Positions 21,816 to 48,404 of a stretch of 64,000 nt of DNA are shown piece after piece. A program made the translations under genes and the position numbers. The DNA lies in contig NC_092642.1 in assembly GCF_039555335.1 (NCBI RefSeq), positions 58,259,776 through 58,323,775 on the forward strand. The letters run 5' to 3'. The notes under the pieces are model-generated. The model had not been told where the DNA came from. It worked only from the letters and a program-made list of their open reading frames with translations, and ran no database searches. Positions within the stretch are counted from its first letter, which is position 1, and each line of letters starts with the position of its first letter. The DNA is from Amphiura filiformis. Its lineage: Eukaryota > Echinodermata > Ophiuroidea > Amphilepidida > Amphiuridae.

Positions 21816-21866
21816 TCATTGCAGTTGGTTTTCCATGCCACTTTCTGTGTCGGAAGTCTGTTCCTC
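21816..21866 (-). CDS. Receptor exon 18: terminal exon with stop
   Basis: After a polypyrimidine-rich acceptor (CACCATATTATTTCAG) the phase 0 frame reads EEQTSDTESGMENQLQ then TGA. The acidic composition continues that of the preceding exons, which supports it as the true end of the protein. Confidence 0.6.
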   Translation of the reverse strand, partial: EEQTSDTESGMENQLQ

Positions 21867-24800
21867 CTGAAATAATATGGTGACAAAAAGAAAATAAGGT
21901 GAGAATATTTTTCGAACAAATAGAAGATGTGAGAAAATCTGAGAAAATCACAATTGTCACCACATGATCACTGAATGAAACCATGACCAAAACTAAAATG
22001 CGTCGCCCTATTATCACTGAATAAAACTGACCACAATTGAAAGGTGTCGACGGTCCCAGGCCATAATCACTGCAACTGCTCGATATTTATTTACGTAGTC
22101 CGTGCATTCTACTCCCAGGAGCTATACTTTTCTTATTTTAGTGGAAAAGGTTTTCCTTTTTTCGAATATAAAATCACTCCACGAAAACCACTATAAACCA
22201 TCAAACAAGACTCATGTACAGAATACAGGTTTGAGATATGGATCTCCACTCTTTCAAGGAGTTGAACGAAGGACAACCCGTTTTGGAGTGGAAAACGCTC
22301 TCAAATGAAAGAAAGTACATTTTCTTTAGGCAATATTCACTCTTTTGAGAATATTATACAGACTACTTCTTTCAATCCCTTTAGAGTGAACATTTTCCAC
22401 TCAAAAAGGGGTTGTCTTCTCCATTTTACTCTTTTTTTCCACTCCTTCCACTCAGTATACATATAATAATTACCATTTCGGTTTGTAGTGTCTCATCATC
22501 TGTTATTCTTGGTATATTGACGTACGACCCTCCTCCATCTTGATCAGACTCCTGGAACACAATAATGTATCATGAGATAAGAGGCTAGAGGTACTTATGA
22601 ACTCCAGAAATATTTTCCTTTAAATAAACATAAAGCATCTTTGAAACATAAAATTGCAGAGAAGCAGAGAAATAAGTATACTTTAACAACTGACATCAGT
22701 TCATTCGGCGTCCCGCGCGCATTTGTTTTTATCAATATCGTTTCAGCCATTTCCTTTTGTTACGTTTTCAAGTTGTTTTTTAGGATTTCCCGTTTTTTTT
22801 TAACTTTCCACTTCACAACAAGGTATAGCCGAGAAGTACAACGCAATATTGAAATTCCCACATAGCGGGTAGCCTCAAAGAAAAACCAAACAAATAAACA
22901 TTTTTAGTTTAGTTTTGGCAGGTAGCATCTTTATTCTTCATCATGAAGAAACAACACAACATATTTATTTTTCAAAATAAACATTTTATCTAGAAGTCAC
23001 TGAAGTAACCTGTTTTGCTTACTTCGTCGGCCATATAGGCTGGCAAATCATCCACATTGTTATCACTGTAGTACACCTGGGTTTGAGTATTGTCCACGTG
23101 ATCCACATCGGTGTCTTCTATTGGTTGGTTCTCTACATCATAAGTTGTGACCTGCAATAAAACATTTTAAATACAATTTGCATGAGCTTCCTTATGATAA
23201 ATAATTATTGTTTCCATAAAACCGGGAACATAGCAAACTGTCAAGATAAGACAAAAATGTAAATTTTCATGACCATATTTGGAATCAGCATGAAAAATGC
23301 ATTAAAATGAGTACAATCAAGCCTAGTATTGGTTCAGTGGTTCTTGAGATAGCTCTTGATATTTTGAGAAAATATCTCAAAACTTGGGACTTCTTATGTT
23401 GAAGCCTATGGCTAGCATGCAGAGCAATGTGGGGATAATGCATATGTATGCATACACAGTGCCGTACCGACTGAAATGTCCAAGAGGGTAAAATTGCAAA
23501 TTCGTCCCGCAAACCCGCTCCACAAATTACAATTATCCGGGCAAGTGCGTGCGAAACGCGCTAACGTGTGGAATATGAATGAATGCTTGAAAACTCACTA
23601 TATTAAATATGTTTGGCTGAAATATGCGAAAAGGAAGAACCACACCCAAATAATGGCGAATCATGTTCCGCTATTTCGTGCTGGGGACAACTTCCCTGTC
23701 CCGGTCGCTACATTGAAAAAAGAAATTTCTTCTGATAAGTTAAAAGTTGGGCACTGAGACACCGTCAATCAAAAATGCAATATTCGTTGACAAATATTGT
23801 AGCCATCCTAGTACAATAATTATGGCATTGCGCGTTTAGATATTCGTATCATTTTAAAATTATTGTCATCAGAAGCAAAACAAAATTGAACAAAATAATG
23901 AGATATTACTCCAACTTGTGCTCTCTAAAACTTACCAATTCGGGTGCTTGATTCTCATTTAGTATATTATGATTTCCATTGGGTGTAACTTGAGTGTTCA
24001 CATAGATTGCATCAAATTCTGCTTCCGCTTCCTCTTCCTATAAAAGATGACAAGTAGCAGTAAGCGGCGTAGCCAGGATTAAAGTGTGAGGGGGGGGGGG
24101 GCAAATTTCCGTCCCCATTTGTCAATTTATGTTTAATTTTTAGTTATTTTAATGACAGTTTACTCTTGTCGTCCCCATTTTATCCCTTAAATTTCGGGTA
24201 GGGGGTAATTTGCCTCCCCTGCTCCCCCTGGCTACGGCCCTGATAACAGTTCAGTTGAGTTTCACTAGTAAAAAATTTTAAAAGGGAGTGTCAAAAAGCG
24301 ACCTTCGCCGAAAAACTAGTGGTGGTCAATATGGGAAGTTATAATAGGGGTACTACCGTAAAAACTCGATAATAAGCAGACATGTATGTGCTTACTATCG
24401 AGCGCTTTTAAAACATGAAGTGCCCTATCCACAAAAGTGTAAGTAAACCATCGATACACATATACGAAAGTGCAAGTAAACCTGCAAATTTGTGTTTCAA
24501 CCCCATTAGCTCAGTAAGTGTCGGACTTTGGTACAATTTCATGTTTTCAAAGGCGCTCGATAGTAAGCACATATGCTAACTATCGAGTTTTACAGTATTT
24601 GGCGAGCTCAGGGAAAGGGGTTAACTACAGGTACAGGTTGGAACATTAAAGCCATATTATAACATTTTCAAACAAAATAGATTAGCATTTCTTTGACATA
24701 AAATGTTAGCTTTTACTGTCAGATATATCCCCTTTTATTTTTGAGCCGAACAACTATACGGCAAAGCAAAGAAAATTGGAATTTACTACCAGCGCACATG

Positions 24801-27800
24801 TCGTCAATACGTACCACTCCTTCGGTCATGTTGTGGTACGACCCTTTGTTGTGTATATCATCGTCTCGCACGCCGTGTACGTATGTGTGTTATGAACATC
24901 GTGTATGCGTTCGACTAATAATTCCATCGTAATAATAAAGCGCCGGTTCCGGCGTTTTATTCAAAATCTCGGATTTTGACAAAACTACAGCACCTAGAGT
25001 CTTGATTTTTGCAGGGTATATTGGTTTAATAAAGTACAATTTAATCGTGTAAAAAAAAGAATTTTAAAAATTCAGTGAGGGCGTCTTCCATAGCAAATGT
25101 TATAATATGGCTTTAAGTGCTCCATCCATCCCGACCAGATCCAGTGGTGTGTGAGGAAGATTCACTGGTCAGTGTCGTATACCAAACACTCACGTGAATG
25201 CTCGCTTGAAGGAGACACTTACTTTTCCGGTAATAATTTTATCCGATGTGGGCGTTCTATTCCCCAAGTTAAAACACACAAGGATCAAAGCACCCATAGT
25301 ACCCATAAGTAGCACCACCGCGATTGTAGCTGCTATCGTACCTTGAAGAACCGGACCTCTGTCTGCTAAAACATGACAAAATATATATGAAAAACATTTT
25401 GTTAATAAATTCAGTACTGTGTTGGAGGAGGTGGGAACATTAAACAATCCTGGCAGATGTAAGCGCAGCTCCAGACATTTTTAAGTGGCTATGAAGTATG
25501 GGTTATATTAGAACTTGAAGGCATCACGAGTCACATGCAGTGACCAATTTTAGAGCACTGTGTTTAAAGGCTGCGCATTAATTATGAGCCCCCCGGGTAA
25601 TTTCGTGCCAAAAATCGCTTGCCCCTCTCAAAAAAAAAAAAAAAATCTTTTCCTCCCTCCTTTGCACATGGCAAATTTTCTCAATTTGCAAACTTTAAAT
25701 GGTCTAGATATAATAATACGAGCGTAGTGAGCAGGAAATTTGCATATTTGAATATTTCTAGAAGCTTCTATAGTATTTTCCTAAGCCTTTTAGAGTGTGT
25801 TATGTAAAAGGTGCCCAGTAAATGTGTGCCAAAAATTACTTGCCCCCTCCTCCGCTTGCCAAAAAAATCATTTTACCCTTGTGCAGGGCTCATAATTATT
25901 GCACAGCCTCTTTTAAAATTTAACGTAAAATCCCTCTGAAAATAAACGCATGCACCCGTGGTGTCAAAAATAAATGGATTGATGTGGAAGATGGAAAGTT
26001 TTTTTTCAGTAATATCTTTGAAAGTCTATATACCAGTAGGCCTATACTTACTATCTTTTGTTCTGACTGGTTCCATGTATGAACTTGATGCATATTCAAC
26101 CTAAGAACCAAGAAAACAACAAAATAAAATGTTCATTATTATACCACTTGAAATATTTAGTAAGATTGCTTTTAATCAATACATAGATTTCTCCTAACCA
26201 TTTAAAATAGTAAAGAAACTATTTTTAAATATAGATATGAAAAGTTTTCTTGTTTCTATATTGTTAAAAGACTACAATATAATCATGACTATAAAGAACT
26301 ATTACAATTTTCTTTAATTTAAAATGCTGGGATATTTTAACAATTTTAAATACAGAAATGTAGATATTAACTGAAATACTCAAGTGAATCTTAATTACGT
26401 TTGTGTCAATATATAGGCTTACCATATTATCGTCCACTAGTGCATAAACTCTGACGAATGCAGAGTATAACACTCCGCTTCGTAAAGGCCCGTTCTCTGC
26501 GTTTCGTTTTCTGGCTACTTCCGTTTCTCGGCGTCTTCGTCTGGTGCCATTTGTTAGTGGTGAGTCACTGCATTCTGTCAATGATCCGTCGCCAATTACA
26601 ACAGTAGAAGTATTTGCTGTCATCTCTTCACTGAAGGAAAACAATTAAGGTACATAGTAAAACGACTTTTGGAACGGCTCCATTTCGAGCCTTTTGTGCT
26701 GCTACATGTGCAAGTAAGAAAGGAGCAATACAACTAAATTCGATCAAAGCGAAGCTTTTCATAGCAACAGTTCTCGAGTAGACCAGCAGTCTGCCATGAG
26801 CAGTTTTTTTTTTACCAGGGGCACTCCCAAAAAATTATGTGCCCGTCCGGTATCCGGGGTCCGGTAACATTGACCCCATTTTCAACTCCCTTCTCAGTCA
26901 CCAAATAACTCCACACACAAACAGACACCATTTTGAAGAATTTTGAACAAATTTCTGATAATTTTTTATAGTGTCACGGAAAGACCCTCTTTTTGTTTTT
27001 AAATTCTCCCTCTCACGAACCCACTCCTTTATGGGCCTTTGCACTCATGACCAGTCACCGAAAGACCCCTAGTTTCGAAATGGTGTCCACACATTCCTCA
27101 CTTCCAAAGACCCCTAGTTTCGAAATGGTGTCCACACATTCCTCACTTACAAAGTGGTGTTCCCCACCCCATATTTTCAATAGGACCATACCATACAATA
27201 CTACAGTTGTGTGAAGGAGTCGGAGCATATATAGGCCCTACCCGAATACGTTGAAACCTCGCTTCGATAGTTGATACCCGCATTACCTTCAATATTTCCA
27301 ATTCTAAAATCTTTAGCACATTACGGGGCCGGTCACCTAAAAAATGCACAACACAGGCCTACTTTATCGACATGTGACATATTTACGAAATTAATGTAAT
27401 TGATTTGAACGTTATACTTTCTCTAGAGATCCATTTTACTCTACAAATACAATAACTGACATATATGAAGGCCATTTACCTCGAGAATGTTAAAGCTACA
27501 TATGGATGTCCTGGTTGAGCTCCAGACGTCGCATAATCAGTGATGTTCTCTGGTGGGAAATCTTCGTTAGGTTTGGTACCAGAAAGATCCTGTAACTTAT
27601 CCAGAGGAATTACTACCACTTCATAGCACCTGAAGCCAATTGCGTGATCAAAAAAGGTTTAGCCTTAATATTTTAATAAAGTAATAAGCTAATTCATGTA
27701 TAAGTATAATATTGAAAATGTGCCTTATAAGTGTGACGAAGTAGGCCTACTTGCTAACCAGCCCCAAATTGCTTTCCCCACTTGTGCGTTTGTAAATATC

Positions 27801-30800
27801 TCCCCCCTCCTTTTAATTAATGCATACCCCTAACTTGCAAGTTGCAACTCCGTTTTTAAAAACAAAGACATAATTTTGCTTACGTTATTGGTCCGCTTCT
27901 ACTCGATACTTTATTGAGGGTCATTGGTATGGTTGTCTTGGTGACACGGCTGGCAGATTGAGAACTCTGTGCTGCCTTTTCAGGCGCGGTAATAACGTCC
28001 TCTTCGGGAGCTTTGAAATAGGTGGTTAAAACATTTAGTAAGTAAAAGTATAGGTAAAGTAAAAAAAAAGTATAAACAACTGAGGGAAACCAAAGTAGTG
28101 AAGATGGAAGAAGCAGACAAAGACAGCTTTAGCCCGGAGTTTTAGACGGGTAAAGGGTGGGGGAGGGGAAAGGACAGATATAAATCAGATAGAACCGAGA
28201 GATATATCCAGAAAGGCAGACTAAAGTGAACGCCTATCAACATAATTGTTTTCATGTAACAATGAAACTTGAAAATAGACCTTTTACCATACTTTCGAAA
28301 TGAGGAGCCATCATCAGGGACACGTCTTTTGAGAACAAATTTTTAATGGTTGAAGAGTGTTTCATATGGTAACTAAGAACATATAGAGTTTTCTATATAG
28401 GTAAAGAAAGAAATGATAATTACAAACCTCCCGGTTGTGTTGTGCAATACACACTGTCACATATACATTGTTCACCCTCGCCATTGTCAGTAGTGGCTGT
28501 AAGCTTAAAGTCATATCTGGAGTAGGACTTCAATGTTTCCTTAGTAAAGCGATATTCAAATGTAAACGCATCCACTTCAATCGATCCTTCTCCATCTATA
28601 GCCCCATAGACATCATCGGTTTCGGTTAAGCCGCGGACAGTATAGTATACCTAAAAAGCATCAATTTTGAAAACAATTCTATTTATCATGACTCGTGATG
28701 AGCACTACCCAACAATAAACCAAATGTGATGTTGCTAAAATACTGTCTAACAATGCCTATAATTATAGTAATAGACTCTATTTCATGCCCCATTGTGTCC
28801 AAAGTTCCATAAACCGATAAATAATAGGGGTGACACAATAATTACACTTAAAAGTGTACTCCCGGCCGCGTAATTTCTTTCAGCAACCATAAGGGGCTGC
28901 TATACGATTACACATAGTAGGCCTACATGTAAGTATATGAGGCTAGATATAGCACGAGTTTATTACACAGCCGTGCCGCGGCTGTGTCTTGTATCGTACG
29001 AAAACTTTCTGTCGACCTTTACATTTGCTCTAGCACTCACATGCTTGCACCGATTTTGACCCAACTTGGTCACAACCATCATTGACCATGCCCCTACATG
29101 TCACATGAAATTCGTGGGGTCAAAGGTCACGTAGGGGTCACAGGGGTCAAAAACATGATTTCAATTCAAAATGCTACTTCTCCCACAAATTTCGCAGGAC
29201 AGTAACGCCACTTGCACACATGCATTGTTATTACCAAGTGTCTATAATTCATACACAGATTTGAGGTCAAAGGTCATTAAGGGGACATTTCCGGTATAAA
29301 ACCAAATTCCTTCAAAAAATTTTATAAGCTAAGAAAAACATAGGAGAGTGATGGTATGTTCACACGTGAATTGTGTTTACCCAATGTATATGTGGTATTT
29401 TTTTTATTTGGGGTCAAAATTATTAAGGGGTCACTTCCGGTATAAAACAAAATACCTTCAAAAAATTTTATCAGCCAAGAAAAACATAGCACATAGCACA
29501 TAGCACACTGACGGTATATTCACACATGAATTGATGTTACCTATTGTACACGTGGTATTTTTTTCGGGTGGGTCAAAGGTCATTAAGGGGTCACTTTCGA
29601 TGTCTGACCGAATACCTTCAAAATGCTTCTTTTCTCAAATTACGCGGCGCAGTGATATTGTGCCCGGTGCATATTGGCTATAGCCAGTGTCTATGTCTGA
29701 CCGAATACCTTCAAAATACTTCTTCAAAGGTTCTTTCGATAGTATCGATCAATACCTATGTATAATTGGCCTTTCGTTTTGTTGCTAGCTTTTTTCATTA
29801 AAGTACTCGTTTATGTTGCATCAGGTAAATAATTCGTATAAATTGTAACAATTTTAGCTCAATGTCTTCTTTTTAAAAGAACTATTTTACGGGTTACACA
29901 ATTGGACTCGGAAGGTTACGGTGATTAACTCCTTTCCCGGGACTCCTTATCACCGCCTCTTCACTGTGCTCTTCACAGCTAAAATATATAAATCATGCAT
30001 GTGAACGTTGATTCACTTTCCCACGCCTGAATGACATGACATCAATTAAGGATATGACCATTGGATGAACCCTTACACTACATAATGCACACGTTGCACA
30101 AAGCACAACCGCTAGCAGTTATGTTTACAATGTTTTCAATTGTGCGGATTTTCGGCAACACACAAGGCATTTTATGTACCATGTTTATAGTTTTGTATGA
30201 TGAAAAGCGTGTCATTTATAGGATATAATACGTGCCCTCGGGGATGTGTACTTGAATCCCTCAAGATGATTTTGCTACACAGTTTAAACCTAATGGGTAA
30301 TTGGGAAGGGGTGATCAGATTGTTTAAACTCATCTTTCCATTTTTTTGCGTAAAACATCTTCATGCCAATAACTAACGAGGGTCATCCTCAAGTGTTTAC
30401 CATGTAAAAGGTCATTCTGGGGCGATTTACACCGTGGATATTGCAGTTTTGTCCACGGCAAATTCACCGTGACCTTTTCAGCCATAAACACGCTTAGTGA
30501 AGATTAAACCGAAATATGCAGTACAATCTAATGAACAGGGGAACATTTTGTAGGGGTCAGATCAAAGGTCATGCAGAGGTCAAATTTTAGAAATGCATTA
30601 TCTGGACATCTGTAAGGGGTACGGGACTCAAACTTGGTGACAACAAGCCTCATGACCAAGGGACCATTTTGGAACATTTTGCAAGGGTCAGATACCTCCA
30701 CAACACCAACACGCCCCAGCTAGGTTTGTGGTCTGTGACCACCATTTGCCACTATTTTCAACTCAAAATGCTACTTCTCCCACAAATTTCGTAGGACAGT

Positions 30801-33800: not shown

Positions 33801-36800
33801 TGTTTCTGTGAATATCATCCGAAAAGTAGGCCTCCTGCACATTATGATTTTGCCTTGCTTTATTTAACTCTTTACTGGGGTGCATGCTCTCTGCTGGTTT
33901 TTTTCATGTTCCTCTTATCATTATTGACAAGATAGCACCTGCTGTACGCTGTTTATTTATTTCGCCCTAAATTATTTCTTTACTTGTGTTTTAGATTTTG
34001 AAGTTTATATCATGATAGCATACGTTATGTTTTTATACCAACCGCGTTTTCTTTTTGAAAACAGTTCTCGTTTCAAATCCTGGTCCGCAATGTCAACATT
34101 CAGTTCGTTCATAAAATATGGCTATTTATTTATGTCGCGTGTTAAGTAGTTCTTTATTTTTTGCTCGAAGTGTATAAATATCATCAGACACATGTCACAT
34201 TTTTATGTATGATTGTTCATTATCTAATCTTAAAATATATAATTCTTTAAACTTATTTCTTTTTTTCTGTTTCAGTGAATATCATCCGAAAAGTAGGCCT
34301 CTGCACATTATGATTTTCCTTGTTTTATTTAAACTCTTTATTGAGGTACATGCTCCTCTTATCGTTATTGACAAGTCAGCACATGCTGTACGCTGTTTAT
34401 TTATTTCGCCCTCATTTTCTTTACTTTTGTGTTTAGATCTTTAGTTCTTTATTTTTGTTTCTGTGAATATCATCCGAAAAGTAGGCCTTCTGCACATTAT
34501 GATTTTTCCTTGCTTTATTTAACTCTTTACTGGGGTGCATGCTGTCTGCTGGTTTTTTTCATGTTCCTCTTATCATTATTGACAAGATAGCACCTGCTGT
34601 ACGCTGTTTATTTATTTCGCCCTAAATTATTTCTTTACTTGTGTTTTTAGATTTTGAAGTTTATAATCATGATAGCACACGCTATGTTTTTATACCAACC
34701 GCGTTTTCTTTTTGAAAACAGTTCTTGTTTCAAATCCTGGTCCGCAATGTCAATGATTCAGTTCGTTCATAAAATATGGCTATTTATTTATGTCACGTGT
34801 TAAGTAGTTCTTTATTTTTTGCTCGAAGTGTATAAATATCATCAGACACATGTCACATTTTTATGTATGATTGTTCATTATCTAATCTTAAAATATATAA
34901 TTCTTTAAACTTATTTCTTTTTTCTGTTTCAGTGAATATCATCCGAAAAGTAGGCCTCTGCACATTATGATTTTCCTTGTTTTATTTAAACTCTTTATTG
35001 AGGTACATGCTCCTCTTATCGTTATTGACAAGTCAGCACATGCTGTACGCTGTTTATTTATTTCGGCCTCATTTTCTTTACTTTTGTTTTTAGATCTTTA
35101 GTTCTTTATTTTTGTTTCTGTGAATATCATCCGAAAAGTAGGCCTTCTGCACATTATGATTTTTCCTTGCTTTATTTAACTCTTTACTGGGGTGCATGCT
35201 CTCTGCTGGTTTTTTTCATGTTCTTCTTATCATTATTGACAAGATAGCACCTGCTGTACGCTGTTTATTTATTTCGCCCTAAATTATTTCTTTACTTGTG
35301 TTTTAGATTTTGAAGTTTATATCATGATAGCACACGCTATGTTTTTATACCAACCGCATTGTCTGTTTCAGTTTTTATAACTGTATATATTGCAGGGTTG
35401 CCAAACCCGCGATGTAATAGGCCTATAGGTCAATAGGATGAGTTTTGAAGATTTTCCTCGCGACAATTTCCTGTCCTATAGACACCAATTGATGGTTAAG
35501 AAAAATATTGCATGACTTCTCAACACTGGCTTACGCGACTTCTGGTAGTTTTTTATCTCATAGAAACCAACGGTTGATAAAAAAATATTGGGCGACCTTT
35601 CAATGATTTGACCCGCGGTTTGCCCTCATTTGTTTGGCAACCGTGGTCTGTGTTAAGTGAATATATTTCGGTAAGAAAACAATTATCATAGACCATGTAG
35701 ACAGAACGGACAATGGTCATAGGCGCTCTCCTCCATTTTGAGAAATATACTTTTACACACACACTACATTTATAATTAAAATGATCAGCCTTAAAGTTTT
35801 ACCTTTTAGTGGGTTAAGCCAAACCTAAGTGGATGAAATGTAAATCAACACTTCTGGCACTGATTGGTTTCCGTAGTTGTTATATGGAATACGAGCTGTC
35901 TGTAGCTACAAAATTGCCTGCAAATCGGCTTTTGCCGGGCCTCTCTTTTTCGGCGTTTTTCTCATTAAATTAGGGTCCCGTTCAAATAAAAACTAAACTG
36001 GTGTCTAGATGTAATCACAGTTAATAACACACCAGGAAAATTATAGAATATACAACAACCTAGTTACACCTGTAGACCGCGAACAAACATGCACCTGGCC
36101 AGACCTGGCCGTATCACTTAGTGTTCTCCCTACGGATACCCTTAAGGGTCACACAATTAAGCCTCGGGCCCAGGTCGAATTGACAGATCGTACGGGGGGG
36201 ATTGGGCTGGTCAATAAATGTAATGTCATTGGACTTTGTTGGCCCAGTATGCTATACTATAATGTTTGCTGTGCATGTAGACCTAACTACACATCCCTTT
36301 AAACCAGTTAAATGCGCTACACATTATGTCTACAAGTCTCAAGAACTTTGCACTATAAAAGAGGCTATGCAAGTTTGGCACGTGGTGGTTAGAGATTTTC
36401 AAGTCAAAAGTGGGGGATAATGGCCACCTTTCACTGTAAACGTATAAGTTAGTCAAAAAAGATCTAATTCGACTAATTTTCGACTAATTAAAATTATTCA
36501 AGGAAATTAATGCTGAAATTATGTATTCATAATGCTAAAAGAACAGTAATATCATTTATTTGCATCATTTCAACATACCGTATAGTGTGATAAGATGCCA
36601 TTAGGTGACAGAGGTTCCTCCCATTGTATGATACAGTATTGTTCGTCGTCCTCAGCTGAGACAGCTGTCGGCGAGCTTGGAGCTGCAAATATGTTATTAA
36701 TGATATAAATCTAACAAATTGATCAACAGATTATTTAGTACGTTTTGCCCAAGTGTTTTTTTTTTTTTCGCCCGTTTTTCGTATTTCTACTATCAATAGA

Positions 36801-39800
36801 AATGACGGCAAAGACATATGCAAGGGGCAGCCTATTTATTTATTTAATAATCACACAAAGGTACGAGGCAACCTACTTTGTTGCTAACTTTCCGCAGCTG
36901 CATCAGCAGATGCCGAGATCTGCTTGTTTTCTGTTGACAAGGGGAAGCCTTAAGTAAACGGCTCTTTTCAGAGCCAACAAACCTTTAAGTTTAGCAGATA
37001 GGCGAGACCTGCTTGTTTTCTGTTCACAAGTGGAAGCCTTCAGTGAACCTTTCTTTTCAGAGCCACCAAACCTTTAACTTTAGCAGATGGGCGACGCCTG
37101 CTTGTTTTCAGTTGACAAGGGGCGGTCTTCAGTGTCAGTGAATGGCTCTTTTCAGAGCCATCAAACCTTCAAATTTAGCAGATAGACGAGATCTGCTGTT
37201 CTCTGTTGGCAAGGGGCAGTCTCCAGTGAACGGCTCTTTTCAGAGCCATGAGTAGGCACGGGATGGCCTACATGTCTCATTCTTAGGTACTTTGTCCTGT
37301 AGAAGACAGACTCCTGACGAACGATTGACAGTTCTAAACTTGTCCGACGGCGAATCCGCTAAAAAAACCCAGCTAATTGTAATGAACTCCTGTCGTAAAA
37401 GCCTATTCCATAACCTATAAGATATGTGGTATCTGCTTCAATTGACACATTGGGCAGGTCTCCCAACTCTGGCAATGTGTGATTTGCACATAGGCGCCCT
37501 ATCAATGTGACACTTTTACTTGGTCCCAACCCTTTGAAGGTGTCAATTTAATACCTTTCAAAATGGATCCTGAGACGAGACCTCAATGGTATAAATTTAA
37601 AATGACACCGTAAAGGTGTTTATCATGATAATAATAAGGTATCATGGTGTTTTGGGTGTTTTTTTTTTTTTTTGGGGTGGGGGGGTGTTTTTGGACGAGG
37701 CAGGTAACTAGCTTCTGTATATGAATTTTAAAAAGTTATAGTTTTCTGATTACCATATTTTCAACTTATCGGGTATTTTTGCAGGCCAGTACAAATTGAG
37801 AGGGGGGGGGTCCTGGACAATGTGGTCGATTGTGTAGGCCTATTATGTAGGCCTACATTATCATCCTTGATCTCCTTCCCCTGGACATTTTGAATAATTT
37901 CAATGTATTCCTACTTACGATATGGCAATGTAGTGAAAGAGAACTCTTCATTTGATCCGGGTCCAGCATATTGTCCTGTAATATCAACATTAACTGCGTA
38001 TATTTCAACATCGTACGTAGTATCGGGTACCAGACTATCAATTGTGATATATGGATGGCTGCCGTCTTCCGCTGCAGATTAAGATTAAACCATTAGAAAT
38101 TATTAATGTACTTTTTTTTTATAATCAGCTAGTTTAAGGGCTGGGGTATGAACGTTTGGACAGTATTTATTTTGGGACATTAGAGCACATCAGACATATC
38201 GAATTGCATTCTGAATACGAAGAATGTCATTCTGATATCAAATAATTTAGATTTTTGAAATTCGCAATTTAATACACATTTTATGGCAAATCATTAAAAA
38301 TTGATATTTTTGATATTTAACAGTACTTGAAGTAAACTTTATAAATCTGATGATTTATACTTAAAGTGTATGTAGGTGGGATGAAAAGCCGACGATCAAT
38401 TGAACATTTTGACCTTTCGTATTGAAGATATGGATTTTTTTCCCAAAATACCCAAATAAATTAGGTCTTTTTGGGAAAAATGCATATCTTCAATATGAAA
38501 GGTCAAAATTTTCAATTGACCGTCGGCTTTTCCTCCCTGCTACATACACTTTAAGAATATATCATTAGATTTATATAATTTACTTCGAGGACTGTTATAT
38601 ATCAAAAATTTGAAAAATATCAAATTTTTATAATTTGTCATAAAATTTGTATTATATTGTGATTTTCAGAAAATGAAAATTATTTGATATCAGAAAGACA
38701 TGCTTCGTATTCAGAATGCAATTCGATAGGTCTGAGGTGCTCTCATGTCCCACAAAAAATACTGTCGAAACGCAATAAACGCTCATTTTAGATCCCTTAA
38801 TATGTACTAGTTTTAACGACAAGCCTTAAAAGTGGAAGTAAATGTGAGTAAAATGGGTTTGGGTAGGTGGTTTTCATGGTTTACTTACTACTGTACACAG
38901 TTAATGGTGTTTTACTCGACTGAAGTGTCACACGGTAGAAGCTGATAGGCCCATTTCGCACAAAAGGTTCGTACCACTTTATTTCAGCTGAAGTCTGGGC
39001 TATTGAGTCTGTGGAAACTCCAAATGGACTCTCAGGATCTAGATAAATATAATAGAAATATAAGTGAATGATAAAAAATTACTTTAATCGTGAGATCAAT
39101 TTACATTAGGCCTACGTTATAGATCCCTCAGACAATTTCACCAACGTGTTACTTGAAATGTAATATTCAACCATAGTATGGTTGGCAAATGCTGCATAAC
39201 ACCTGTCACCAACTGTCAACATTTGACAACTACTGCCGCAGGTGTAGGTCACTTCCTGGAAAGCTGGACTGAACAACGTCAACTGATGTGACTGACTCCA
39301 CATCTGGTTCACATACGAGAACTTATAGGGGGTTAATAATATTGATTCAAAACCAGTCCACCTGGCACTTTAGTAACGCCATACCTGGCTGTATGACAAT
39401 GTGGTAAACTTGTCATGATTAGTAGAATTTCAAGTCAGCTGTAACGTAATGAAAGATAATGAAGTGCATTTGTGTGTAAAACTACTTCGAAAATAAACAA
39501 TAGGAATATTTGTTTTTAAAGTCCTGTCCTTGATAGGCATAGGCCTATCTAATATTTTACTAGGATAAAAAAAATGGACATGCCTATTCTCTATGACACG
39601 ACGGGATAGTAAAATCAGAATTTCATGTCGTTTATTCTTATTTTGTCAGCCAATGACAAGCCTTGTCCTTGATTGTGTCCGTTTGTCTGCAATGCGCGTG
39701 CGTCGTGCTGCTTAAATGTAGCTACAGTCGGCATGGCAGCATTATTAGTAATATCTTAAAACTATTTTATTTCACATGTTAGCGCCGTGAAAACTCCCCT

Positions 39801-42800
39801 TATTATAAAATAATCGAAACTTGTTTACTTCTTTAGTTGTGCGATCACATTTGCGTATTACACTGCCTACAACTCGCTACATGCTCGCTAGACGTGTCGT
39901 AGACTACACCAAGGAACCAATGAGATTGAGCGCTTAATAAGCTAAACCACACCCCGCATAATAGCCTTTTCAAGATATGGCGGACACAATAGGATGGCGC
40001 TTCACGAAGTGGGTAAAGTCGTTTGAATTTGCCGGGTTTTTACCCAGATTGAAGACTGTCCTCCTTTTGTGTACGCCATACTTCGAAAAGAAAGGCTAAT
40101 TGACTAAGAATGTGTTCTAGATGTTAGACTTACAAGATACGCCAGTTTTAATAGCTATCAATTCCACCACATTGCTGGATCCGATTTCATTTTCGCACGT
40201 CAACCTGACATCATAATCGGTATACGCTGATAAATCACCAATCAGATATCTCGTCTGTATATCAATTGGGATATCGTTAGCTGCGATTATCCAATCCTGT
40301 GGCTCACTCGAGAGTTTATATTGTACGGTACATGTGGTACTTGCAGAGTTGCCGCTGTTGGATAAGATTATCCATTCTGCGAACAGCGTGGACGAACTAG
40401 TGGATTTGACACTCTCGATCACGCTCGGAGGAACAGGAACTGAAATGGTAAATTCAGAAAAAATTTGAAATATACTTCTGATACTTTCACAATAATAATT
40501 GATCCAGGCGCCACCGTGACACAGAAAGAACTGCATGGGTGTGTTCAAGCATTTGCTTTTGAGAAATACGAATTAAAAATGTTAATTTTCTGTGTCTGTT
40601 TGCTAGTTTGTTTGTTTGTTTTTTGGATGTCTTTTCTACATTGAATCTATAAACTTACCAATGACATTGATAACCGTTTCATTATACCGCGTAACCAATC
40701 CTTCTCCCGGAATTGTTGTTCCAACAGTACACCGGTATGTCCCGCTGTATTGTTCCATTGATATCCCAGTCAAGCTGACTCGGTACTTGCCTACATCCAT
40801 TGAATCATCTACGTGTAGATTGCCGTAAGTAGTTACAAGACTGGGAAGGGTGAATTGGACGCGGTAGTTGCTGACATCCTGAACTGGTATATTGGTCCGG
40901 CATACTAGGGTCAGCGTGTGACCTTCGTAGACATTTTTATTAAGAGAACTCACAGATACAGTAAAATCACCTGAAGTAGATTGCAACATACAAAAACAAC
41001 GTTTAGGCACTACGATATGCTAAGTTGCGGCTTATATTAAAAGATATACGGTACTTTTCCATTGACATTTATTAAATCTATATTGTAAATATTCCTCAAG
41101 AAGCGGTCATATTTTTGTTTCCAAATTCTGATTTTGAAACAAATGCATTATGTATTGTGTATCTCACTCTGAAAGGCAAGGCCTTATAAAGTGCTGTATT
41201 TTTGGACGAAATCTGATCCTTTCAAAAAAAAATCGGAAATGGCTAAATCAGCTTTACCCCTCACGCATCAAACTTGTAGCGACTTAAAACGATTCGATTC
41301 GACTTTTGCAACTGTCGTTCCAGTCGTTTTCAGGAAGCAAACCTGGAATTCCAGATACTAATTTTCTTTTACTGAAAAAATTAATGTAGGCCTACTCCTC
41401 TATAATAAAGGATGTGCCCCTTTTTTCTGGAACAGCCCTTACGTTTATCACACGCTGCTCCATCAAATGCGGGTTGGCAGGAACAGGTCCCATCGTCACT
41501 GTCACACACTGTATCTGATGGGGCGCTGACACAAGTGCATGCTTCACTACATCCAATGCCGTAGAGACCATCAGGACAAACTGCAGCGGACAAGAGACAT
41601 GAAAGGAAGATTAATTTGAGCACCTGTTAGATCAAATCGGACCGGGATTCAAGACCAACCATTTCAAGTTAATTTCAACAATAACTTACGTATGGGCTGA
41701 TGGAACCTGCAAATTAAAAGGACATTTTCTGATGACATATACATAATAAAAAATAGCAGGACTCAAATGCTAAAATCAAGATGTGAAAGAACGCGGAAGC
41801 TTTCATTTTCCAGATATAGCCTATGATTTTGTATGGCAAATATGTTGCGCACAAAAAGTAAAGTACCGGGTATAGTAAGTAAGTTTACACTTATGGGATG
41901 TAAAGCATGCGCGTATATTTTTTTTGGGGGGGGGGGGTAAAAGCAAGGGGCGGCCAAATTGAAGGGGCGGCGGAAGAAGAAGGGGCAGCAAAAAAGGGAC
42001 GGAAAAAAAAACGAAGGGGCGGCAAAAAGAATTAGTAAATAAAAAGGGCGGACAAATTTGATAAAGCATAACATTTTTGAAAAATGGTACTATACATCAA
42101 AATGTGCTGCTTTTAGGGCGCTAGCGCCTGAAACCTTTTTTTTTTTTTTTTTTTTGCTCTTCACTTTTTCAAACGGTCAACCTTCGGACAATTTTCTTCA
42201 GCCCCCCGGGGTTGGGGCGGCCACGGTACGCCACTGGATAGGCTGATACCATGTCATGGTTCACTGTCAACAAAAACAGTAAGTCCAGTTGCAAAGATTT
42301 ATAACCTAATCTAACTTTATTCAACTACCTGGATGATTGAGAATATTCATAGATATATTTCATGGTTCAGCAAAAATATTTACCCAATTGTTGTTTAAAT
42401 TGTGTAAAATTGAATCTTGTCAACCAGAAAAACTCACTTTGGTTAGATGGAATCACCGACGTTGCGGCCAAAATCGATTGACCTCGGATGACCCTAGATC
42501 ATCCACCCAGCTGAAGGCCAAAGGTTTTGGCCGCAACGTCGGTGATTCCAAAGTGAGTTTTTCTGGTTGACAAGATTCAATTTTACACAATTTGAACATT
42601 TCCCAGATGAATGAAAGTATACATAGGGCAATTGTTGTTTAACTTTACAATTGCGGCCACTTTTACAAGCGTATAGATACTTTTTGTGTGCAGTATATAC
42701 TCACATAAATGGATGAAGATAGTGTGGTGCATGGTGCATGATCAGATGATATTGCTATGAACGTGAAACTCTTCCAATAATGACACGAAAATGATTCCCT

Positions 42801-43773
42801 TTTGAATCATTGAACGTGCAATGTTAATAATCTGACATGCATGTTGATTGTTGATCAGAATGGTATTAATTTTTAAAATGTGATAATTGAAAAGTTGAAA
42901 CTTACCAGTTTGTGTGACGCAACCTTGAAAGGATGAAAGAAAGAAAGGAGCAATAAAAGTAAATTATAGGCCTAATAATACAATAAACTGTACATTCAAT
43001 ACTCTCGGATTTTCATATACACCCAAGTTTAATATAACTATAGCAATGCGCACATTCATTCGAACCTTGGATATATATTTCACTATTTTTATCCATTTTG
43101 TACGATCTTTTTAAATAGACTGATTTCATTCAATGTTTGTTGTCTTTTAACATGTTTAGAGTGACTAAGAAAACAATATTTGCCATGATAAAATCATTGA
43201 CATGCACATGTATTTAATTTTACAGAAGAATGGGAAAGAGAATCATTATATACCTGTATCATGATAAAACGGTAAAAACAGTAAAAACTATTTTGTATTG
43301 TTGTGTATTCATTCTTTTGATTTCACGAAGGAACTCTTGATAAACTTTATGCTTTCATTGATTTACATGTACAGCGCTCTTCCGTAGTAAAAGTGGCACA
43401 ATTGTGATTTTAACCTTTCGTTGTTAACTAAACATATCTCGTGATTAAAGCAAGCACATTGATCAGAATAACCGGTATTTGAGAGCTAAGACTATGCCCT
43501 TAACATTGTTATAAGCATCATGTCACAACGGTATTTTCTAATTGCCAAAGAGTGCGCTTTTCATTTGCACAATTTGCACAAAGACAGGCTGTATATTACT
43601 ATTAAATATTATTTCATCGTGCATTTTTGGTTTAAATATTGTATATACTAGGGTTTTAAGCTTATTTCTGATGTATTTTGATGTATTTTGAATTTTGAAA
43701 TACTTATGCACGTCCTACCTTTCATTAGGAAAGTGGTGAAGGCAAAGATGACAGCGCCATTAAGTAGCTTCAT
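21816..43773 (-). CDS. RPTP-like EGF/Ig/FN3 receptor lacking a catalytic domain
   Basis: Eighteen minus-strand exons with GT-AG borders join in phase into 2,496 coding bases (831 residues plus TGA): 43773-43719, 42923-42906, 41580-41443, 40970-40659, 40439-40134, 39038-38889, 38071-37919, 36682-36579, 28650-28428, 28010-27884, 27629-27480, 26630-26423, 26100-26052, 25365-25223, 24037-23936, 23151-23023, 22551-22474, 21866-21816. Order: signal peptide (1-18), EGF-like (25-70), Ig (71-174), FN3 (175-276, 277-377, 378-486), membrane-proximal FN3-like region (487-664) with RRRRR at 609-613, TM helix (about 673-696) and a 135-residue acidic cytoplasmic tail. Ectodomain introns are mainly phase 1; tail introns are all phase 0. 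The membrane-proximal part (GPITCYEVVVIPLDK, ENGPLRSGVLYSAFVRVYA) resembles receptor tyrosine phosphatases, and the EGF-Ig-FN3 order recalls Tie receptors. No phosphatase or kinase exon was found. The tail has YVNT and YVNI, matching the Grb2 SH2 consensus pYxN. Signalling by docking is inferred; extra or alternative exons cannot be excluded. Confidence 0.8.
22474..22551 (-). CDS. Receptor exon 17: tail with YVNI
   Basis: A 26-codon phase 0-0 exon, ESDQDGGGSYVNIPRITDD, with a second pYxN-type motif (22524-22513). Donor is GTAATT. If unspliced, the frame continues 15 codons to a TAA at 22428-22426, giving an alternative C-terminus. Confidence 0.7.
23023..23151 (-). CDS. Receptor exon 16: acidic, tyrosine-containing tail
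   Basis: A 43-codon phase 0-0 exon: VTTYDVENQPIEDTDVDH, TQVYYSDNNVDDLPAYMADE. Four tyrosines sit in acidic surroundings. Acceptor TTATTGCAG, donor GTAAGC. Confidence 0.75.
23936..24037 (-). CDS. Receptor exon 15: tail with YVNT
   Basis: A 34-codon phase 0-0 exon, acidic EEEAEAEFDAIYVNTQV. Tyr in YVNT (24004-23993) fits the pYxN Grb2-type SH2 site. Acceptor TTTTATAG, donor GTAAG. Confidence 0.75.
24063..24243. mobile_element. MITE fragment with GGCGTAGCCAGG termini
   Basis: GGCGTAGCCAGG at the left and CCTGGCTACGGCCCTG at the right, with a G/C-run interior that includes GTCCCCATTT repeats. Same family as the element at 867-1093. It lies next to receptor exon 15, within the intron. No clean target duplication was seen. 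Confidence 0.6.
25223..25365 (-). CDS. Receptor exon 14: transmembrane helix
   Basis: RGPVLQGTIAATIAVVLL, then MGTMGALILVCFNLGNR: one hydrophobic segment of about 24 residues, followed by a mildly basic juxtamembrane stretch ending IITGK. Phase 1 to 0. Confidence 0.85.
26052..26100 (-). CDS. Receptor exon 13: stalk
   Basis: A 49-nt exon, VEYASSSYMEPVRTKD, joining the last FN3 strand to the membrane segment. Phase 0 to 1; TTCTTAG acceptor and GTAAG donor. Confidence 0.75.
26423..26630 (-). CDS. Receptor exon 12: polybasic site and end of FN3
   Basis: Contains NGTRRRRRETEVARKRN (arginine run at 26528-26542), a likely furin-type cleavage site of the kind used to split receptor phosphatases into two chains, then ENGPLRSGVLYSAFVRVYA, the conserved final FN3 strands. 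Phase 2 to 0. Confidence 0.8.
26818..27180. repeat. GGGGCACTCCC-type repeat with internal duplication
   Basis: Starts CCAGGGGCACTCCCAAAAAA and includes two tandem copies of AAAGACCCCTAGTTTCGAAA plus TGGTGTCCACACATTCCTCAC (27060-27145). Similar ends occur at 11935-12056 and 51285-52650. It lies in a receptor intron. Confidence 0.5.
27480..27629 (-). CDS. Receptor exon 11: membrane-proximal FN3, middle
   Basis: CYEVVVIPLDKLQDLSG and PPENITDYATSGAQPGHPYV. The CYEVVVIP strand and long acidic loop are typical of receptor phosphatase ectodomains. Enters and leaves in phase 2; donor GTAAAT. Confidence 0.8.
27884..28010 (-). CDS. Receptor exon 10: start of membrane-proximal FN3
   Basis: APEEDVITAPEKAAQSSQSA, then TTIPMTLNKVSSRSGPIT. 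The TIPM-L-x4-SxxxGPI pattern resembles the start of the membrane-proximal FN3 of receptor tyrosine phosphatases. Ends in phase 2. Confidence 0.8.
28428..28650 (-). CDS. Receptor exon 9: FN3 domain 3, second half
   Basis: Starts VYYTVRGLTETDD, continuing the Y-V-Y strand of exon 8 in phase 0. Later residues SYSRYDFKLTATTDNGEGE are the F-G strand region, and a CICDSVYC cluster is unusual for FN3. The donor is GTTTGT, weaker than the others. Confidence 0.8.
28950..31495. repeat. 2.5 kb interspersed element with internal repeats
   Basis: The segment between ACACAGCCGTGCCGCGGCTG (28966) and AACACGGCTGTGTTCGTGGT (31447) contains at least eight degenerate copies of GGTCATTAAGGGGTCACTTC, together with TTGCACACATGCATTG and AAAAACATAGCAC blocks. 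It occupies the receptor intron between exons 8 and 9. No open frame or transposase was seen. Confidence 0.7.
31557..31622 (-). repeat. tRNA-like sequence, probable SINE head
   Basis: On the minus strand: TAGCAAAGTCGTGTAGGCG (A-box-like), then GGATCCATATATTGTGGG and GGTTCGAACCCC (B-box). The overall length and box spacing are tRNA-like, but acceptor-stem pairing is poor. The central GGATCC is shared with 9690-9756, so both probably belong to one SINE family. Confidence 0.5.
31712..31790. repeat. Degenerate interstitial telomeric repeats
   Basis: A run of CCCTAA-type hexamers with variants (CCCCTAACCCTAACC, CCCTAACC, CCCTAACCCTGAC). These are the complement of the metazoan telomere repeat TTAGGG. 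The run starts about 90 bp from the tRNA-like unit. Confidence 0.8.
33532..33692. mobile_element. TTAA fold-back family, copy B, truncated
   Basis: TTAAGGGCTGGGGTATGAAC and about 140 further bases match the left arm of copies C and D. Homology ends near AAATCATTAAAAATAATAAT, so only the left arm remains. Confidence 0.75.
33700..35370. repeat. 655-bp tandem duplication, about 2.4 copies
   Basis: The anchor TAGTTCTTTATTTTTGTTTC recurs at 33787, 34442 and 35099 (spacing 655 and 657). The copies are nearly identical. Each unit itself contains two related halves (TCATCCGAAAAGTAGGCCT occurs twice per unit). It lies in the receptor intron; the frame 34205-34444 is part of the repeat. Confidence 0.85.
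36579..36682 (-). CDS. Receptor exon 8: FN3 domain 3, first half
   Basis: PSSPTAVSAED and CIIQWEEPLSPNGILSHYT, an FN3 first half with core Trp and P-NG-I-Y motif. Enters in phase 1 and leaves in phase 0; donor GTATGT. Confidence 0.85.
36880..37250 (+). repeat. Tandem array of histone-3'-end-like stem-loop units
   Basis: Four units about 90 bp apart share AGCAGATGGGCGAGACCTGC, TTGTTTTCTGTTGACAAGGG and AAGCCTTCAGTGAAC, then the hairpin GGCTCTTTTCAGAGCC followed by A-rich sequence. The hairpins are at 36960-36975, 37049-37064 (left stem decayed), 37144-37159 and 37232-37247. The 16-nt sequence equals the metazoan replication-dependent histone mRNA 3' stem-loop (6-bp stem, UUUC loop), and unit 2 keeps the ACCA tail. 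No histone coding sequence was found nearby. The array is antisense within a receptor intron. Confidence 0.8.
37640..37700. repeat. Poly-T/poly-G low-complexity tract
   Basis: A T-run immediately followed by GGGGTGGGGGGGTG. No function inferred. Confidence 0.7.
37919..38071 (-). CDS. Receptor exon 7: FN3 domain 2, second half
   Basis: ITIDSLVPDTTYDVEIYAVN is the FN3 E-F strand motif (L-P-T-Y-V-Y-A-N). The exon ends FSFTTLPY. Phase 1-1. Its intron to exon 6 carries fold-back copy C. Confidence 0.85.
38134..38800. mobile_element. TTAA-flanked long fold-back element, copy C
   Basis: A complete 667-bp copy from TTAAGGGCTGGGGTATGAAC to GCTCATTTTAGATCCCTTAA. It is palindromic over almost its full length, with the centre near 38440-38480. 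It lies in the intron between the two halves of receptor FN3 domain 2, so the primary transcript could form a hairpin of roughly 300 bp. Confidence 0.85.
38889..39038 (-). CDS. Receptor exon 6: FN3 domain 2, first half
   Basis: PESPFGVSTDS and AEIKWYEPFVRNGPISFYRV give the FN3 A-C strands with the core Trp and NGPI-Y motif. Phase 1-1; acceptor TTATCTAG and donor GTAAGT. Confidence 0.8.
40134..40439 (-). CDS. Receptor exon 5: FN3 domain 1
   Basis: A phase 1-1 exon of 102 codons with PPSVIESVKS at the start, the core Trp in LFAEWIIL, and L..Y..Y..R in DLSAYTDYDVRLTCENEIGS, which is the FN3 pattern. Donor GTAAGT. Confidence 0.85.
40659..40970 (-). CDS. Receptor exon 4: Ig domain
   Basis: A single phase 1-1 exon of 104 codons. 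It shows the B-strand cysteine in LTLVCRTNIP and the F-strand YSGTYRCTVG. The usual C-strand Trp is replaced (YRVQFTLP). Borders are CTTCAG and GTAAGT. Confidence 0.85.
41443..41580 (-). CDS. Receptor exon 3: EGF-like module
   Basis: One phase 1-1 exon encodes VCPDGLYGIGCSEACTC, then CDSDDGTCSCQPAFDGAAC. This is the C-x-D-G-x-Y-G-x-x-C pattern of EGF-like repeats in Tie/MEGF-type receptors. Acceptor TCCGCTGCAG, donor GTAAGG. Confidence 0.85.
42392..42604. mobile_element. Intronic hairpin element with 80-bp arms
   Basis: The left arm contains CTTGTCAACCAGAAAAACTC and ATCACCGACGTTGCGGCCAA. The right arm is the close inverse, with about 50 bp between. It lies in the receptor intron between exons 2 and 3. 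No coding potential beyond the inverted repeat. Confidence 0.8.
42906..42923 (-). CDS. Receptor exon 2: 18-nt microexon
   Basis: The exon GTTGCGTCACACAAACTG is preceded by an excellent polypyrimidine tract and CAAG acceptor and followed by GTAAG. It is phase 1 to phase 1, adding CVTQT between the signal peptide and the EGF module. Exon 1 could splice directly to exon 3 without changing frame. Confidence 0.6.
43719..43773 (-). CDS. Receptor exon 1: start codon and signal peptide
   Basis: MKLLNGAVIFAFTTFLMK followed by a split Gly codon and donor GTAGGA. It is a typical hydrophobic signal peptide. A possible acceptor (TTTTTTCAACAG) ends just upstream at 43784, so a 5' UTR exon may precede it. 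An in-frame ATG further upstream would give a longer, less signal-like N-terminus. Confidence 0.7.
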
Positions 43774-44393
43774 GTTTACAAACCTGTTGAAAAAATCCAT
43801 ACAAAGAATGAACATGGTCATGGTTCTTTTGAAAATGTTTGTGTGCAAGAAATTTGACAAAAATGCATTTTCACTCTTAGGAAAATAAAAGTGCTACAAA
43901 TTAGACTTCGGCCGTCATCCAGCATGTCCAGGAGGCACCTTCAAAGGTTCTTCAAGAACCAAAAGTTCCGACTCCAAAGGGTTCTTTAAAATCCCTGTTA
44001 GTTCTTACAGCCCCAGAGGGGGCTCTGCGTGCTCGGCATAATTCTAGGCTTCAGCACAAAAAGTTCAAAGTTTTGAAATATTTTCTTAAAATACCAAGGC
44101 CTATCTTAAGAACCCCTGAACCAATAGGCTTGAACTTTGAAATAATTTTAATGTATATTTCAAACTGATTCCAAATATGGTCATGAAAATTTACACTTTT
44201 GGAATTAAGTGAATTTTTAAAAAGTATTTGAAACTTGCCGATGTCGTCTGCAGTCAACAGCACGCACGACACGAATACACGAGTAGGCCTAATTCCTTTA
44301 CACTTTGGGAATATTCATGTATTGTTCGCATCTTCTCGATATGAACTTGTGAAACCATAGACCCAAGAAAACCACTTTAAATTTATTATCATC
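43774..44393. other. 5' flank of receptor gene, no promoter identified
   Basis: Probably contains the 5' UTR and promoter of the minus-strand receptor. I could not identify a TATA box or transcription start with confidence. Confidence 0.3.
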
Positions 44394-45656: not shown

Positions 45657-45661
45657 AGTGA

Positions 45662-48400: not shown

Positions 48401-48404
48401 CCAC

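What the first reader, a model, noticed from the sequence alone, without database searches (positions are those of the whole stretch)
21816..43773. Receptor-phosphatase-like ectodomain on a short, non-catalytic, tyrosine-rich tail
Seen: 18 minus-strand exons join in phase from a signal peptide to a stop codon, giving EGF, Ig, FN3 domains, a TM helix and 135 cytoplasmic residues. The last four exons are acidic, phase 0, and end in TGA with no phosphatase or kinase motif. Known: the membrane-proximal FN3 with GPI-x-x-YEVVV and a polybasic site is typical of receptor tyrosine phosphatases; EGF plus Ig plus FN3 recalls Tie. Inferred: a catalysis-free receptor that signals by docking.
Basis: partly seen in the sequence, partly recalled or inferred. 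Interest (0 to 1): 0.8.

Follow-up and report, generated by a model that had tools for sequence, protein, structure and literature searches.

The report
Brittle-star phosphatase-like receptor lacking its enzyme
This looks like a real brittle-star gene for a cell-surface receptor whose outer part resembles a family of signalling enzymes (receptor tyrosine phosphatases) but whose inner part shows no enzyme and carries sites that may recruit signalling adaptors instead; similar enzyme loss has been described in sea squirts and for the bladder proteins called uroplakins.

Summary
Eighteen minus-strand exons (43773-21816) join in frame to 831 residues plus TGA. A public protein from the brittle star Amphiura filiformis ("uncharacterized protein", isoform X2, 830 aa) is the same except for a 3-base NAG/NAG acceptor choice at exon 14. 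No phosphatase or kinase domain was found in the protein or in the 21.8 kb downstream on its strand.

FN3 similarity peaks at receptor phosphatases, but FN3 is promiscuous. The membrane-proximal segment matches no Pfam profile. It has features of the long juxtamembrane FN3 of R3 phosphatases and uroplakins (NGPL, a C3-type cysteine, furin-type RRRRR, phase-1 flanking introns), but the C4 cysteine is missing, other intron phases differ, and pairwise alignments are weak or inconclusive. "Tyrosine-rich" is mild (6 of 135); two of the six sit in YVN, fitting the pYxN motif bound by Grb2-family SH2 domains.

Best explanation: a non-catalytic, R3-phosphatase-like receptor that, once phosphorylated by another kinase, docks Grb2-type adaptors. 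Catalysis-free R3 derivatives (CionaNocat, uroplakin 3) are published, so this is a new variant of a known kind. No homologue was found; ancestry and function are untested.

The parts
43719..43773 (-). Exon 1: start codon and signal peptide (MKLLNGAVIFAFTTFLMKG)
   Evidence: identical in P0001
42906..42923 (-). Exon 2 (18 nt micro-exon, phase 1-1)
   Evidence: needed to give P0001
41443..41580 (-). Exon 3: EGF/laminin-type domain
   Evidence: EGF_laminin 15.7 bits, 18.6 bits in the N-terminal piece alone, both below the cut-off of 21
40659..40970 (-). Exon 4: Ig-like domain, one exon, phase 1-1
   Evidence: Ig_2 and Ig_3 below cut-off
40134..40439 (-). Exon 5: FN3 domain 1 (phase 1:1)
38889..39038 (-). 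Exon 6: FN3 domain 2, first half
37919..38071 (-). Exon 7: FN3 domain 2, second half (domain pattern 1:1:1)
36579..36682 (-). Exon 8: FN3 domain 3, first half
28428..28650 (-). Exon 9: FN3 domain 3, second half (domain pattern 1:0:1)
27884..28010 (-). Exon 10: S/T-rich linker and start of the juxtamembrane domain (GPIT)
   Evidence: entering intron phase 1
27480..27629 (-). Exon 11: juxtamembrane domain (CYEVVVIP ... HPYVALTFS)
   Evidence: no Pfam match
26423..26630 (-). Exon 12: juxtamembrane domain with VIGDG, C599 (C3-type), RRRRR furin-type site 609-613, NGPL 625-628 (P0001 numbering)
   Evidence: motif from PMC5242461
26052..26100 (-). Exon 13: end of juxtamembrane domain (VEYASSSYMEPVRTKD)
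   Evidence: leaving intron phase 1, just before the TM exon
25223..25365 (-). Exon 14: transmembrane helix (best 19-residue Kyte-Doolittle mean 2.49); NAG/NAG acceptor gives 831 or 830 aa
23936..24037 (-). Exon 15: tail exon, phase 0-0, Y723 in AIYVNT (pYxN type)
23023..23151 (-). Exon 16: tail exon, phase 0-0, four tyrosines (749, 772, 773, 784)
22474..22551 (-). Exon 17: tail exon, phase 0-0, Y798 in GSYVNIP (pYxN type)
21816..21866 (-). Exon 18: last coding exon, ends ...ENQLQ-TGA
22964..23022 (-). Candidate alternative 3' end: read-through of exon 16 gives VSKTGYFSDF-TAG (TAG at 22992-22990), AATAAA starting at 22969 and followed by a GT-rich stretch; would drop Y798
   Evidence: inference only, no transcript seen; 1.67 AATAAA per kb on this strand, so about 0.1 expected in 55 bases by chance

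Best explanation
A single-pass receptor of the brittle star Amphiura filiformis: EGF-Ig-3xFN3, an R3-phosphatase-like long juxtamembrane FN3 segment with a furin-type site, one TM helix, and an acidic, probably unstructured tail. It has no PTP domain. Most likely it descends from, or borrowed its membrane-proximal half from, an R3-type receptor phosphatase, and works as a docking receptor. Ligand or cell contact clusters it; a Src-family-type kinase phosphorylates the tail (Y723 is preceded by an acidic run and Ile, which I recall as favourable for Src kinases); the two pYVN motifs recruit Grb2-family adaptors. The tail sits on four symmetric phase-0 exons, so splicing could change its docking sites without a frameshift. 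Shown: gene model, no catalytic domain found, motifs present. Inferred: ancestry, cleavage, phosphorylation, adaptor binding, ligand.
For: Gene model reproduced by a public annotation. No PTP/kinase found in the protein or downstream. The best six PDB matches of the Ig/FN3 block are RPTP sigma, delta and F (E 4e-14 to 4e-10), ahead of Dscam, PTPmu and NCAM2. Juxtamembrane segment: NGPL (in 0.2% of shuffles of the segment and 0.8% of shuffles of the whole protein), C599 upstream of it, RRRRR between them, in the segment next to the TM; PMC5242461 reports C3X(n)C4NGPL as found only in R3 phosphatases and uroplakins 2/3, furin sites in many invertebrate R3s, and introns 1 and 4, both phase 1, as already present in sponges; here the introns before and after the segment are phase 1. 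With the C3-C4 linker left out, the segment scores against PTPmu FN4 above 4919, 4987 and 4956 of 5000 shuffles in three scoring schemes. YVN twice occurs in 0.06% of shuffles of the tail. Grb2-family SH2 domains bind pYxN (PMC6669380); several R3 phosphatases, including one from sea urchin, have a predicted phosphorylated YxN behind the PTP domain (PMC5336234). CD6, a receptor without catalysis, signals through a YxN plus a second tyrosine (PMC5440646).
Against: C4 of the signature is Glu here, although PMC5242461 finds C3 and C4 from sponges to mammals. Intron phases from the segment through the TM are 1,2,2,0,1,0, not 1,1,2,1,2. No Pfam match for the segment and only one chance PDB match (E 0.33, an SH3b protein). 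Uncut alignments to PTPmu FN4 are not significant (484 to 2657 of 5000 shuffles of the segment reach the score over six schemes, and in 6 of 6 schemes some other stretch of the same protein scores higher). Against uroplakin 3A: 69 of 1000 shuffles (local); 150, 18 and 117 of 2000 (semi-global), with the segment above all 16 control stretches in 2 of 3 schemes; 347 to 519 of 5000 with the linker cut, 2 to 5 of 25 controls as high. In the cut PTPmu comparison 1 to 4 of 25 control stretches score as high, as a generic FN3 signal would give, and the cut was made after the uncut result. R3 ectodomains hold FN3 only; this one has EGF and Ig. PTPRQ and its invertebrate kin lack predicted C-terminal phosphorylation sites. 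Two or more YxN of any kind arise in 12% of tail shuffles, and any repeated Y-tripeptide in 7%. No homologue was found, so conservation of the motifs could not be tested.
Confidence: 0.45

Rival explanations
1. A lineage-specific adhesion receptor or ligand assembled by shuffling of common phase-1 EGF, Ig and FN3 exons, with no special descent from receptor phosphatases; the tail anchors or is regulated otherwise and the YVN motifs are incidental.
For: The EGF, Ig and FN3 modules of exons 3-9 are bounded by phase-1 introns. FN3 matches extend to Dscam, NCAM2, IGF1R and DCC. The juxtamembrane segment matches no Pfam profile, and its uncut alignments to PTPmu FN4 are not significant and are exceeded by other stretches of the same protein.
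Against: Cysteine, furin-type site and NGPL in this order in the segment next to the TM, with phase-1 introns at both flanks, is not expected of a generic FN3; YVN twice is rare by composition.
Confidence: 0.34
2. A truncated or decoy product of a longer phosphatase or kinase gene: the annotated stop is one isoform and catalytic exons lie further away.
For: Only one protein sequence was seen, labelled isoform X2; the database cluster holds 3 member sequences, and what the other two are was not shown.
Against: No Pfam family on the minus strand from 29798 to 1 (the scan is less sensitive to domains split over exons, since it also missed the half FN3 of exon 9), a C2H2 zinc-finger locus on the other strand at 17.0-18.6 kb, and a tail of four well-formed exons ending in a stop that the public protein shares.
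Confidence: 0.08
3. A Tie/Tek-type receptor derivative: EGF-Ig-FN3 ectodomain that lost its kinase.
For: EGF, Ig and three FN3 in one ectodomain; Tie2 chains match residues 144-266 (E 2e-4 to 6e-4).
Against: Weaker than RPTP, Dscam and NCAM2 matches in the same search; one EGF and one Ig, where I recall three EGF and more Ig domains in Tie, and RPTP-type motifs before the TM.
Confidence: 0.08

Closest known systems
CionaNocat.1 / CionaNocat.2 (tunicate R3 PTPR-related proteins without PTP domain; PMC5242461)
   Same: FN3 ectodomain with an R3-type juxtamembrane region, one TM, short cytoplasmic tail, no PTP domain
Uroplakin 2/3 family (UPK3a; PDB 8jj5)
   Same: By PMC5242461 an R3-derived juxtamembrane segment plus TM and short tail without PTP; UPK3 is tyrosine-phosphorylated in fertilised Xenopus eggs as a sign of Src activation (PMC2805626, passages)
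   Different: No further ectodomain modules; keeps C4 (LCNPPL in 8jj5); alignment to our segment weak to inconclusive
R3 receptor tyrosine phosphatases (PTPRB, PTPRQ, PTPRJ; sea urchin_1)
   Same: Juxtamembrane motifs in part, invertebrate furin sites, YxN in the cytoplasmic C-terminus of several members
   Different: They have a PTP domain and FN3-only ectodomains
LAR-type (R2A) RPTPs: PTPRS, PTPRD, PTPRF
   Same: Best sequence matches for the Ig/FN3 block
   Different: Several Ig and tandem PTP domains (recalled); not present here
CD6 and LAT (docking tails)
   Same: No catalysis; tail tyrosines in pYxN recruit Grb2/Gads
   Different: Unrelated otherwise (recalled); an analogy of mechanism only

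Membership tests
R3 receptor tyrosine phosphatase | Single cytoplasmic PTP domain | tested here: not met
   Pfam on the protein, minus strand 1-29798 in three frames, tblastn with the PTPRJ domain
R3 receptor tyrosine phosphatase | Ectodomain of FN3 domains only | tested here: not met
   EGF-type and Ig-type exons at the N-terminus, both below Pfam cut-offs
R3 receptor tyrosine phosphatase / uroplakin 2/3 | Juxtamembrane signature C3X(n)C4NGPL | tested here: inconclusive
   C599 and NGPL present, C4 replaced by Glu (motif)
R3 receptor tyrosine phosphatase / uroplakin 2/3 | Intron phases 1,1,2,1,2 across juxtamembrane segment and TM | tested here: not met
   Observed 1,2,2,0,1,0; the two flanking phase-1 introns agree
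R3 receptor tyrosine phosphatase | YxN in the cytoplasmic C-terminus (several members, not PTPRQ) | tested here: met
   YVNT and YVNI, though not behind a PTP domain
PTP-less R3 derivative (CionaNocat type) | FN3 ectodomain, R3 juxtamembrane segment, TM, short tail, no PTP | tested here: inconclusive
   Parts present, but the R3 nature of the segment rests on motifs
PTP-less R3 derivative (CionaNocat type) | Cytoplasmic tail similar to uroplakin 3a | not tested
   No alignment of the tails was made
Tie/Tek receptor | Cytoplasmic tyrosine kinase | tested here: not met
   No kinase in the Pfam scans; three kinase motif patterns without match in six frames of the window
LAR-type (R2A) RPTP | Tandem PTP domains | tested here: not met
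pYxN docking receptor (CD6-like in action) | Tail tyrosine phosphorylated and bound by a Grb2-family SH2 domain | not testable with these tools
   Motifs only

The most novel reading that the evidence does not exclude
An echinoderm origin, separate from the tunicate/vertebrate one, of a receptor that swapped phosphatase output for adaptor docking: an R3 receptor phosphatase lost its PTP domain, kept or multiplied the YxN docking motif of R3 tails, and gained EGF and Ig modules, with the docking motifs on symmetric exons that splicing or intronic polyadenylation can include or drop.
Probability: 0.22. Interest if true: 0.55.

Novelty: new variant of a known kind. Interest (0 to 1): 0.35.

Why it matters
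If right, it is an echinoderm case of receptor phosphatases turning into catalysis-free membrane proteins, alongside the tunicate CionaNocat genes and vertebrate uroplakins, and would show that the change can keep tyrosine signalling alive by switching from removing phosphate to being phosphorylated. Amphiura filiformis has a published genome and is studied for arm regeneration (PMC11310086, listing and passages), so expression and knockdown tests could be tried. The gene is public but named only "uncharacterized".

Tried and rejected
Homologue searches: three, all used, each returned only the protein itself: 1 of 7996 scored candidates (E up to 1e-3), 1 of 2789 (residues 505-830, E up to 10), 1 of 2665 (residues 376-672, E up to 10). 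The tool needs shared 5-residue words, so distant relatives may be missed; this is no proof of a lineage-restricted gene.

Structure: AlphaFold2 on the single sequence failed (mean pLDDT 31.5); no fold search was made on it, and the second prediction job was not used.

A candidate 17-nt exon at 41690-41706 between exons 2 and 3 has good splice sites but breaks the frame and is not in P0001; rejected.

Paralogue in the window: tblastn of P0001 gave, outside the gene, two chance-level hits (E 1.8 and 4.5). tRNA and Rfam scans: nothing. No ITIM or ITSM pattern in the tail. The W7G4Y loop code of FN3-2 and FN3-3 is reported as typical of PTPRQ, but RPTP sigma has the same spacing in the alignment, so I do not count it as evidence.

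The PTPRJ search gave two neighbouring hits on the minus strand at 1099-1061 and 949-860 (E 6.6); the translation there is full of stops and has no PTP signature, so I rejected them.

Papers: PMC5242461 read in parts 1-3 of 5; PMC5336234 section 11 and passages; PMC5440646, PMC6669380, PMC2805626, PMC10815196 and PMC11310086 as passages only; others as search listings. In nine paper searches I saw no listing about this gene; none was a search for its sequence or accession. The genome paper holds no 'phosphatase' or 'receptor tyrosine' in its main text.


Full report
What is there. The DNA at 43773-21816 (minus strand) encodes 18 exons that join in phase to 831 residues and a TGA; 17 of 17 introns are GT-AG. 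A protein database entry, P0001, "uncharacterized protein [Amphiura filiformis]", isoform X2, 830 aa, is the same except that TD reads N, which the second AG of a TAG|CAG| acceptor at exon 14 explains.

Architecture (P0001 numbering; borders partly by eye). Signal peptide 1 to about 20; EGF/laminin-type domain 26-70; Ig-like 72-174; FN3 domains 176-276, 278-377 and 379-487; a 183-residue segment 487-669 before the membrane; TM about 672-695; tail 696-830. Pfam finds FN3 clearly (84.2 bits) and the Ig and EGF domains only below cut-off. The tail has no Pfam match, 33 acidic and 4 basic residues, and 6 tyrosines.

No enzyme found. Pfam scans at E 0.05 of three frames of the minus strand over 1-9999, 9900-19898 and 19800-29798 show no family at all. 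As a control, the same scan over 33850-43848 recovers FN3 from single exons but not the Ig or EGF exons, and the scan misses the half FN3 of exon 9, so domains split over exons can be missed. Minus strand 43700-63598 also shows no family; 29799-33849 and the last 402 bases were not scanned on this strand. Two PTP and three kinase motif patterns gave no match in the six frames of the window. A PTPRJ catalytic domain gives two hits, E 6.6, in a stretch full of stop codons without the PTP signature.

What it resembles. Against the PDB, 123 distinct sequences reach E 1 (60 shown); the best six are RPTP sigma, delta and F (E 4e-14 to 4e-10), followed by Dscam, RPTP-F, PTPmu and NCAM2; Tie2 chains come at 2e-4 to 6e-4. 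FN3 similarity alone does not settle descent.

The membrane-proximal segment. It reads GPITCYEVVVIP ... HPYVALTF ... VIGDG ... C ... RRRRR ... ENGPL ... YSAFVRVYA ... YASSSYMEPVRT, then the TM. Chicote and co-workers (PMC5242461; parts 1-3 of 5 read) describe a long juxtamembrane FN3 in R3 phosphatases and uroplakins 2/3 with the signature C3X(n)C4NGPL, furin sites in many invertebrate members, and intron phases 1,1,2,1,2, of which introns 1 and 4 are already present in sponges. Ours has NGPL (0.2% of shuffles of the segment, 0.8% of shuffles of the protein), a cysteine at the C3 place, a furin-type site (whether at the same place as theirs I could not see, as figures are not held), and phase-1 introns at both flanks; it lacks C4, which they find from sponges to mammals, and the other phases differ (1,2,2,0,1,0 in all). 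Alignment tests are mixed. Against PTPmu FN4: uncut, 484 to 2657 of 5000 shuffles reach the score, and other stretches of the protein score higher in 6 of 6 schemes; with the C3-C4 linker left out, a choice made after the uncut result, 13 to 81 of 5000 shuffles and 1 to 4 of 25 other stretches. Against pig uroplakin 3A: 69 of 1000 shuffles (local), 18 to 150 of 2000 (semi-global; above all 16 controls in 2 of 3 schemes), 347 to 519 of 5000 with the linker left out. Neither Pfam nor the PDB sequence search recognises the segment. I therefore call it R3-like by motif and layout, not a proven R3 member.

The tail. Two of the six tyrosines lie in YVN (YVNT in exon 15, YVNI in exon 17). Two YVN occur in 0.06% of shuffles of the tail, two of any YxN in 12%, and any repeated Y-tripeptide in 7%, so the fair statement is suggestive. 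Grb2-family SH2 domains bind pYxN, and three LAT sites fit it (PMC6669380, passages); CD6 pY629 in a YxN binds GADS and GRB2 directly (PMC5440646, passages); several R3 phosphatases, including one from sea urchin but not PTPRQ, carry a predicted phosphorylated YxN behind the PTP domain (PMC5336234, section 11). An acidic run and Ile before Y723 suit Src-family kinases (recalled). Exons 15-18 are all phase 0-0, so exons 15-17 can each be skipped in frame; exon 16 can also be read through to VSKTGYFSDF-stop with AATAAA 20 bases after the stop. No transcript evidence was available.

How it probably works. Shown: single-pass receptor layout without a recognisable enzyme, docking-type motifs. Inferred: ligand-induced clustering, phosphorylation by another kinase, Grb2-type recruitment, optional furin cleavage with the two parts staying together, as described for PTPmu and PTPkappa (PMC5242461). 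Uroplakin III is tyrosine-phosphorylated in fertilised frog eggs as a sign of Src activity (PMC2805626, passages), which makes the kinase step credible for an R3-like protein without PTP.

Novelty. Catalysis-free R3 derivatives with short tails are in print (tunicate CionaNocat, uroplakins), so the category is known. What is new is the brittle-star case with EGF and Ig modules and a two-YVN tail. No other homologue was found in three searches limited to shared 5-residue words.

Odds. On checking I lowered the best explanation from 0.50 to 0.45, the boldest reading from 0.25 to 0.22 and interest from 0.36 to 0.35, and raised the domain-shuffling rival from 0.30 to 0.34 and the truncated-product rival from 0.07 to 0.08. 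The reasons: the control stretches, which outscore the segment in every scheme, and the reported presence of C4 from sponges to mammals had been left out, and the nature of the other two cluster members is unknown.

Noticed in passing
17040-18617, + strand: Array of C2H2 zinc fingers (KPYRCQYCNKSF... repeats, 84-nt period) spread over three ORFs in two reading frames, with stops between them: a zinc-finger gene, perhaps decayed or split. It lies tail to tail with the receptor gene.
   Followed up: partly
54013-54129, + strand: Exon-like stretch matching UPF0556 (PF10572; I recall this as the myeloid-derived growth factor family), 23.6 bits, just under the cut-off of 25; no other Pfam match at E 0.01 in 44001-64000 of that strand.
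   Followed up: partly
61687-62111: Ten copies of a 42-nt repeat that is open on both strands; the + frame reads SSAVDSIPSMSSTP-type repeats after a hydrophobic stretch.
   Followed up: no
22964-23022, - strand: Possible intronic polyadenylation: read-through of exon 16 ends in VSKTGYFSDF-stop with AATAAA and a GT-rich stretch behind it.
   Followed up: partly
41690-41706, - strand: 17-nt sequence with good acceptor and donor between exons 2 and 3 that would break the frame if spliced in.
   Followed up: yes
33700-35400, - strand: Intron 8 holds repeated blocks spaced about 655 bases apart; a 20-base marker recurs at 35357, 34702 and 34045 (blocks seen by eye).
   Followed up: partly
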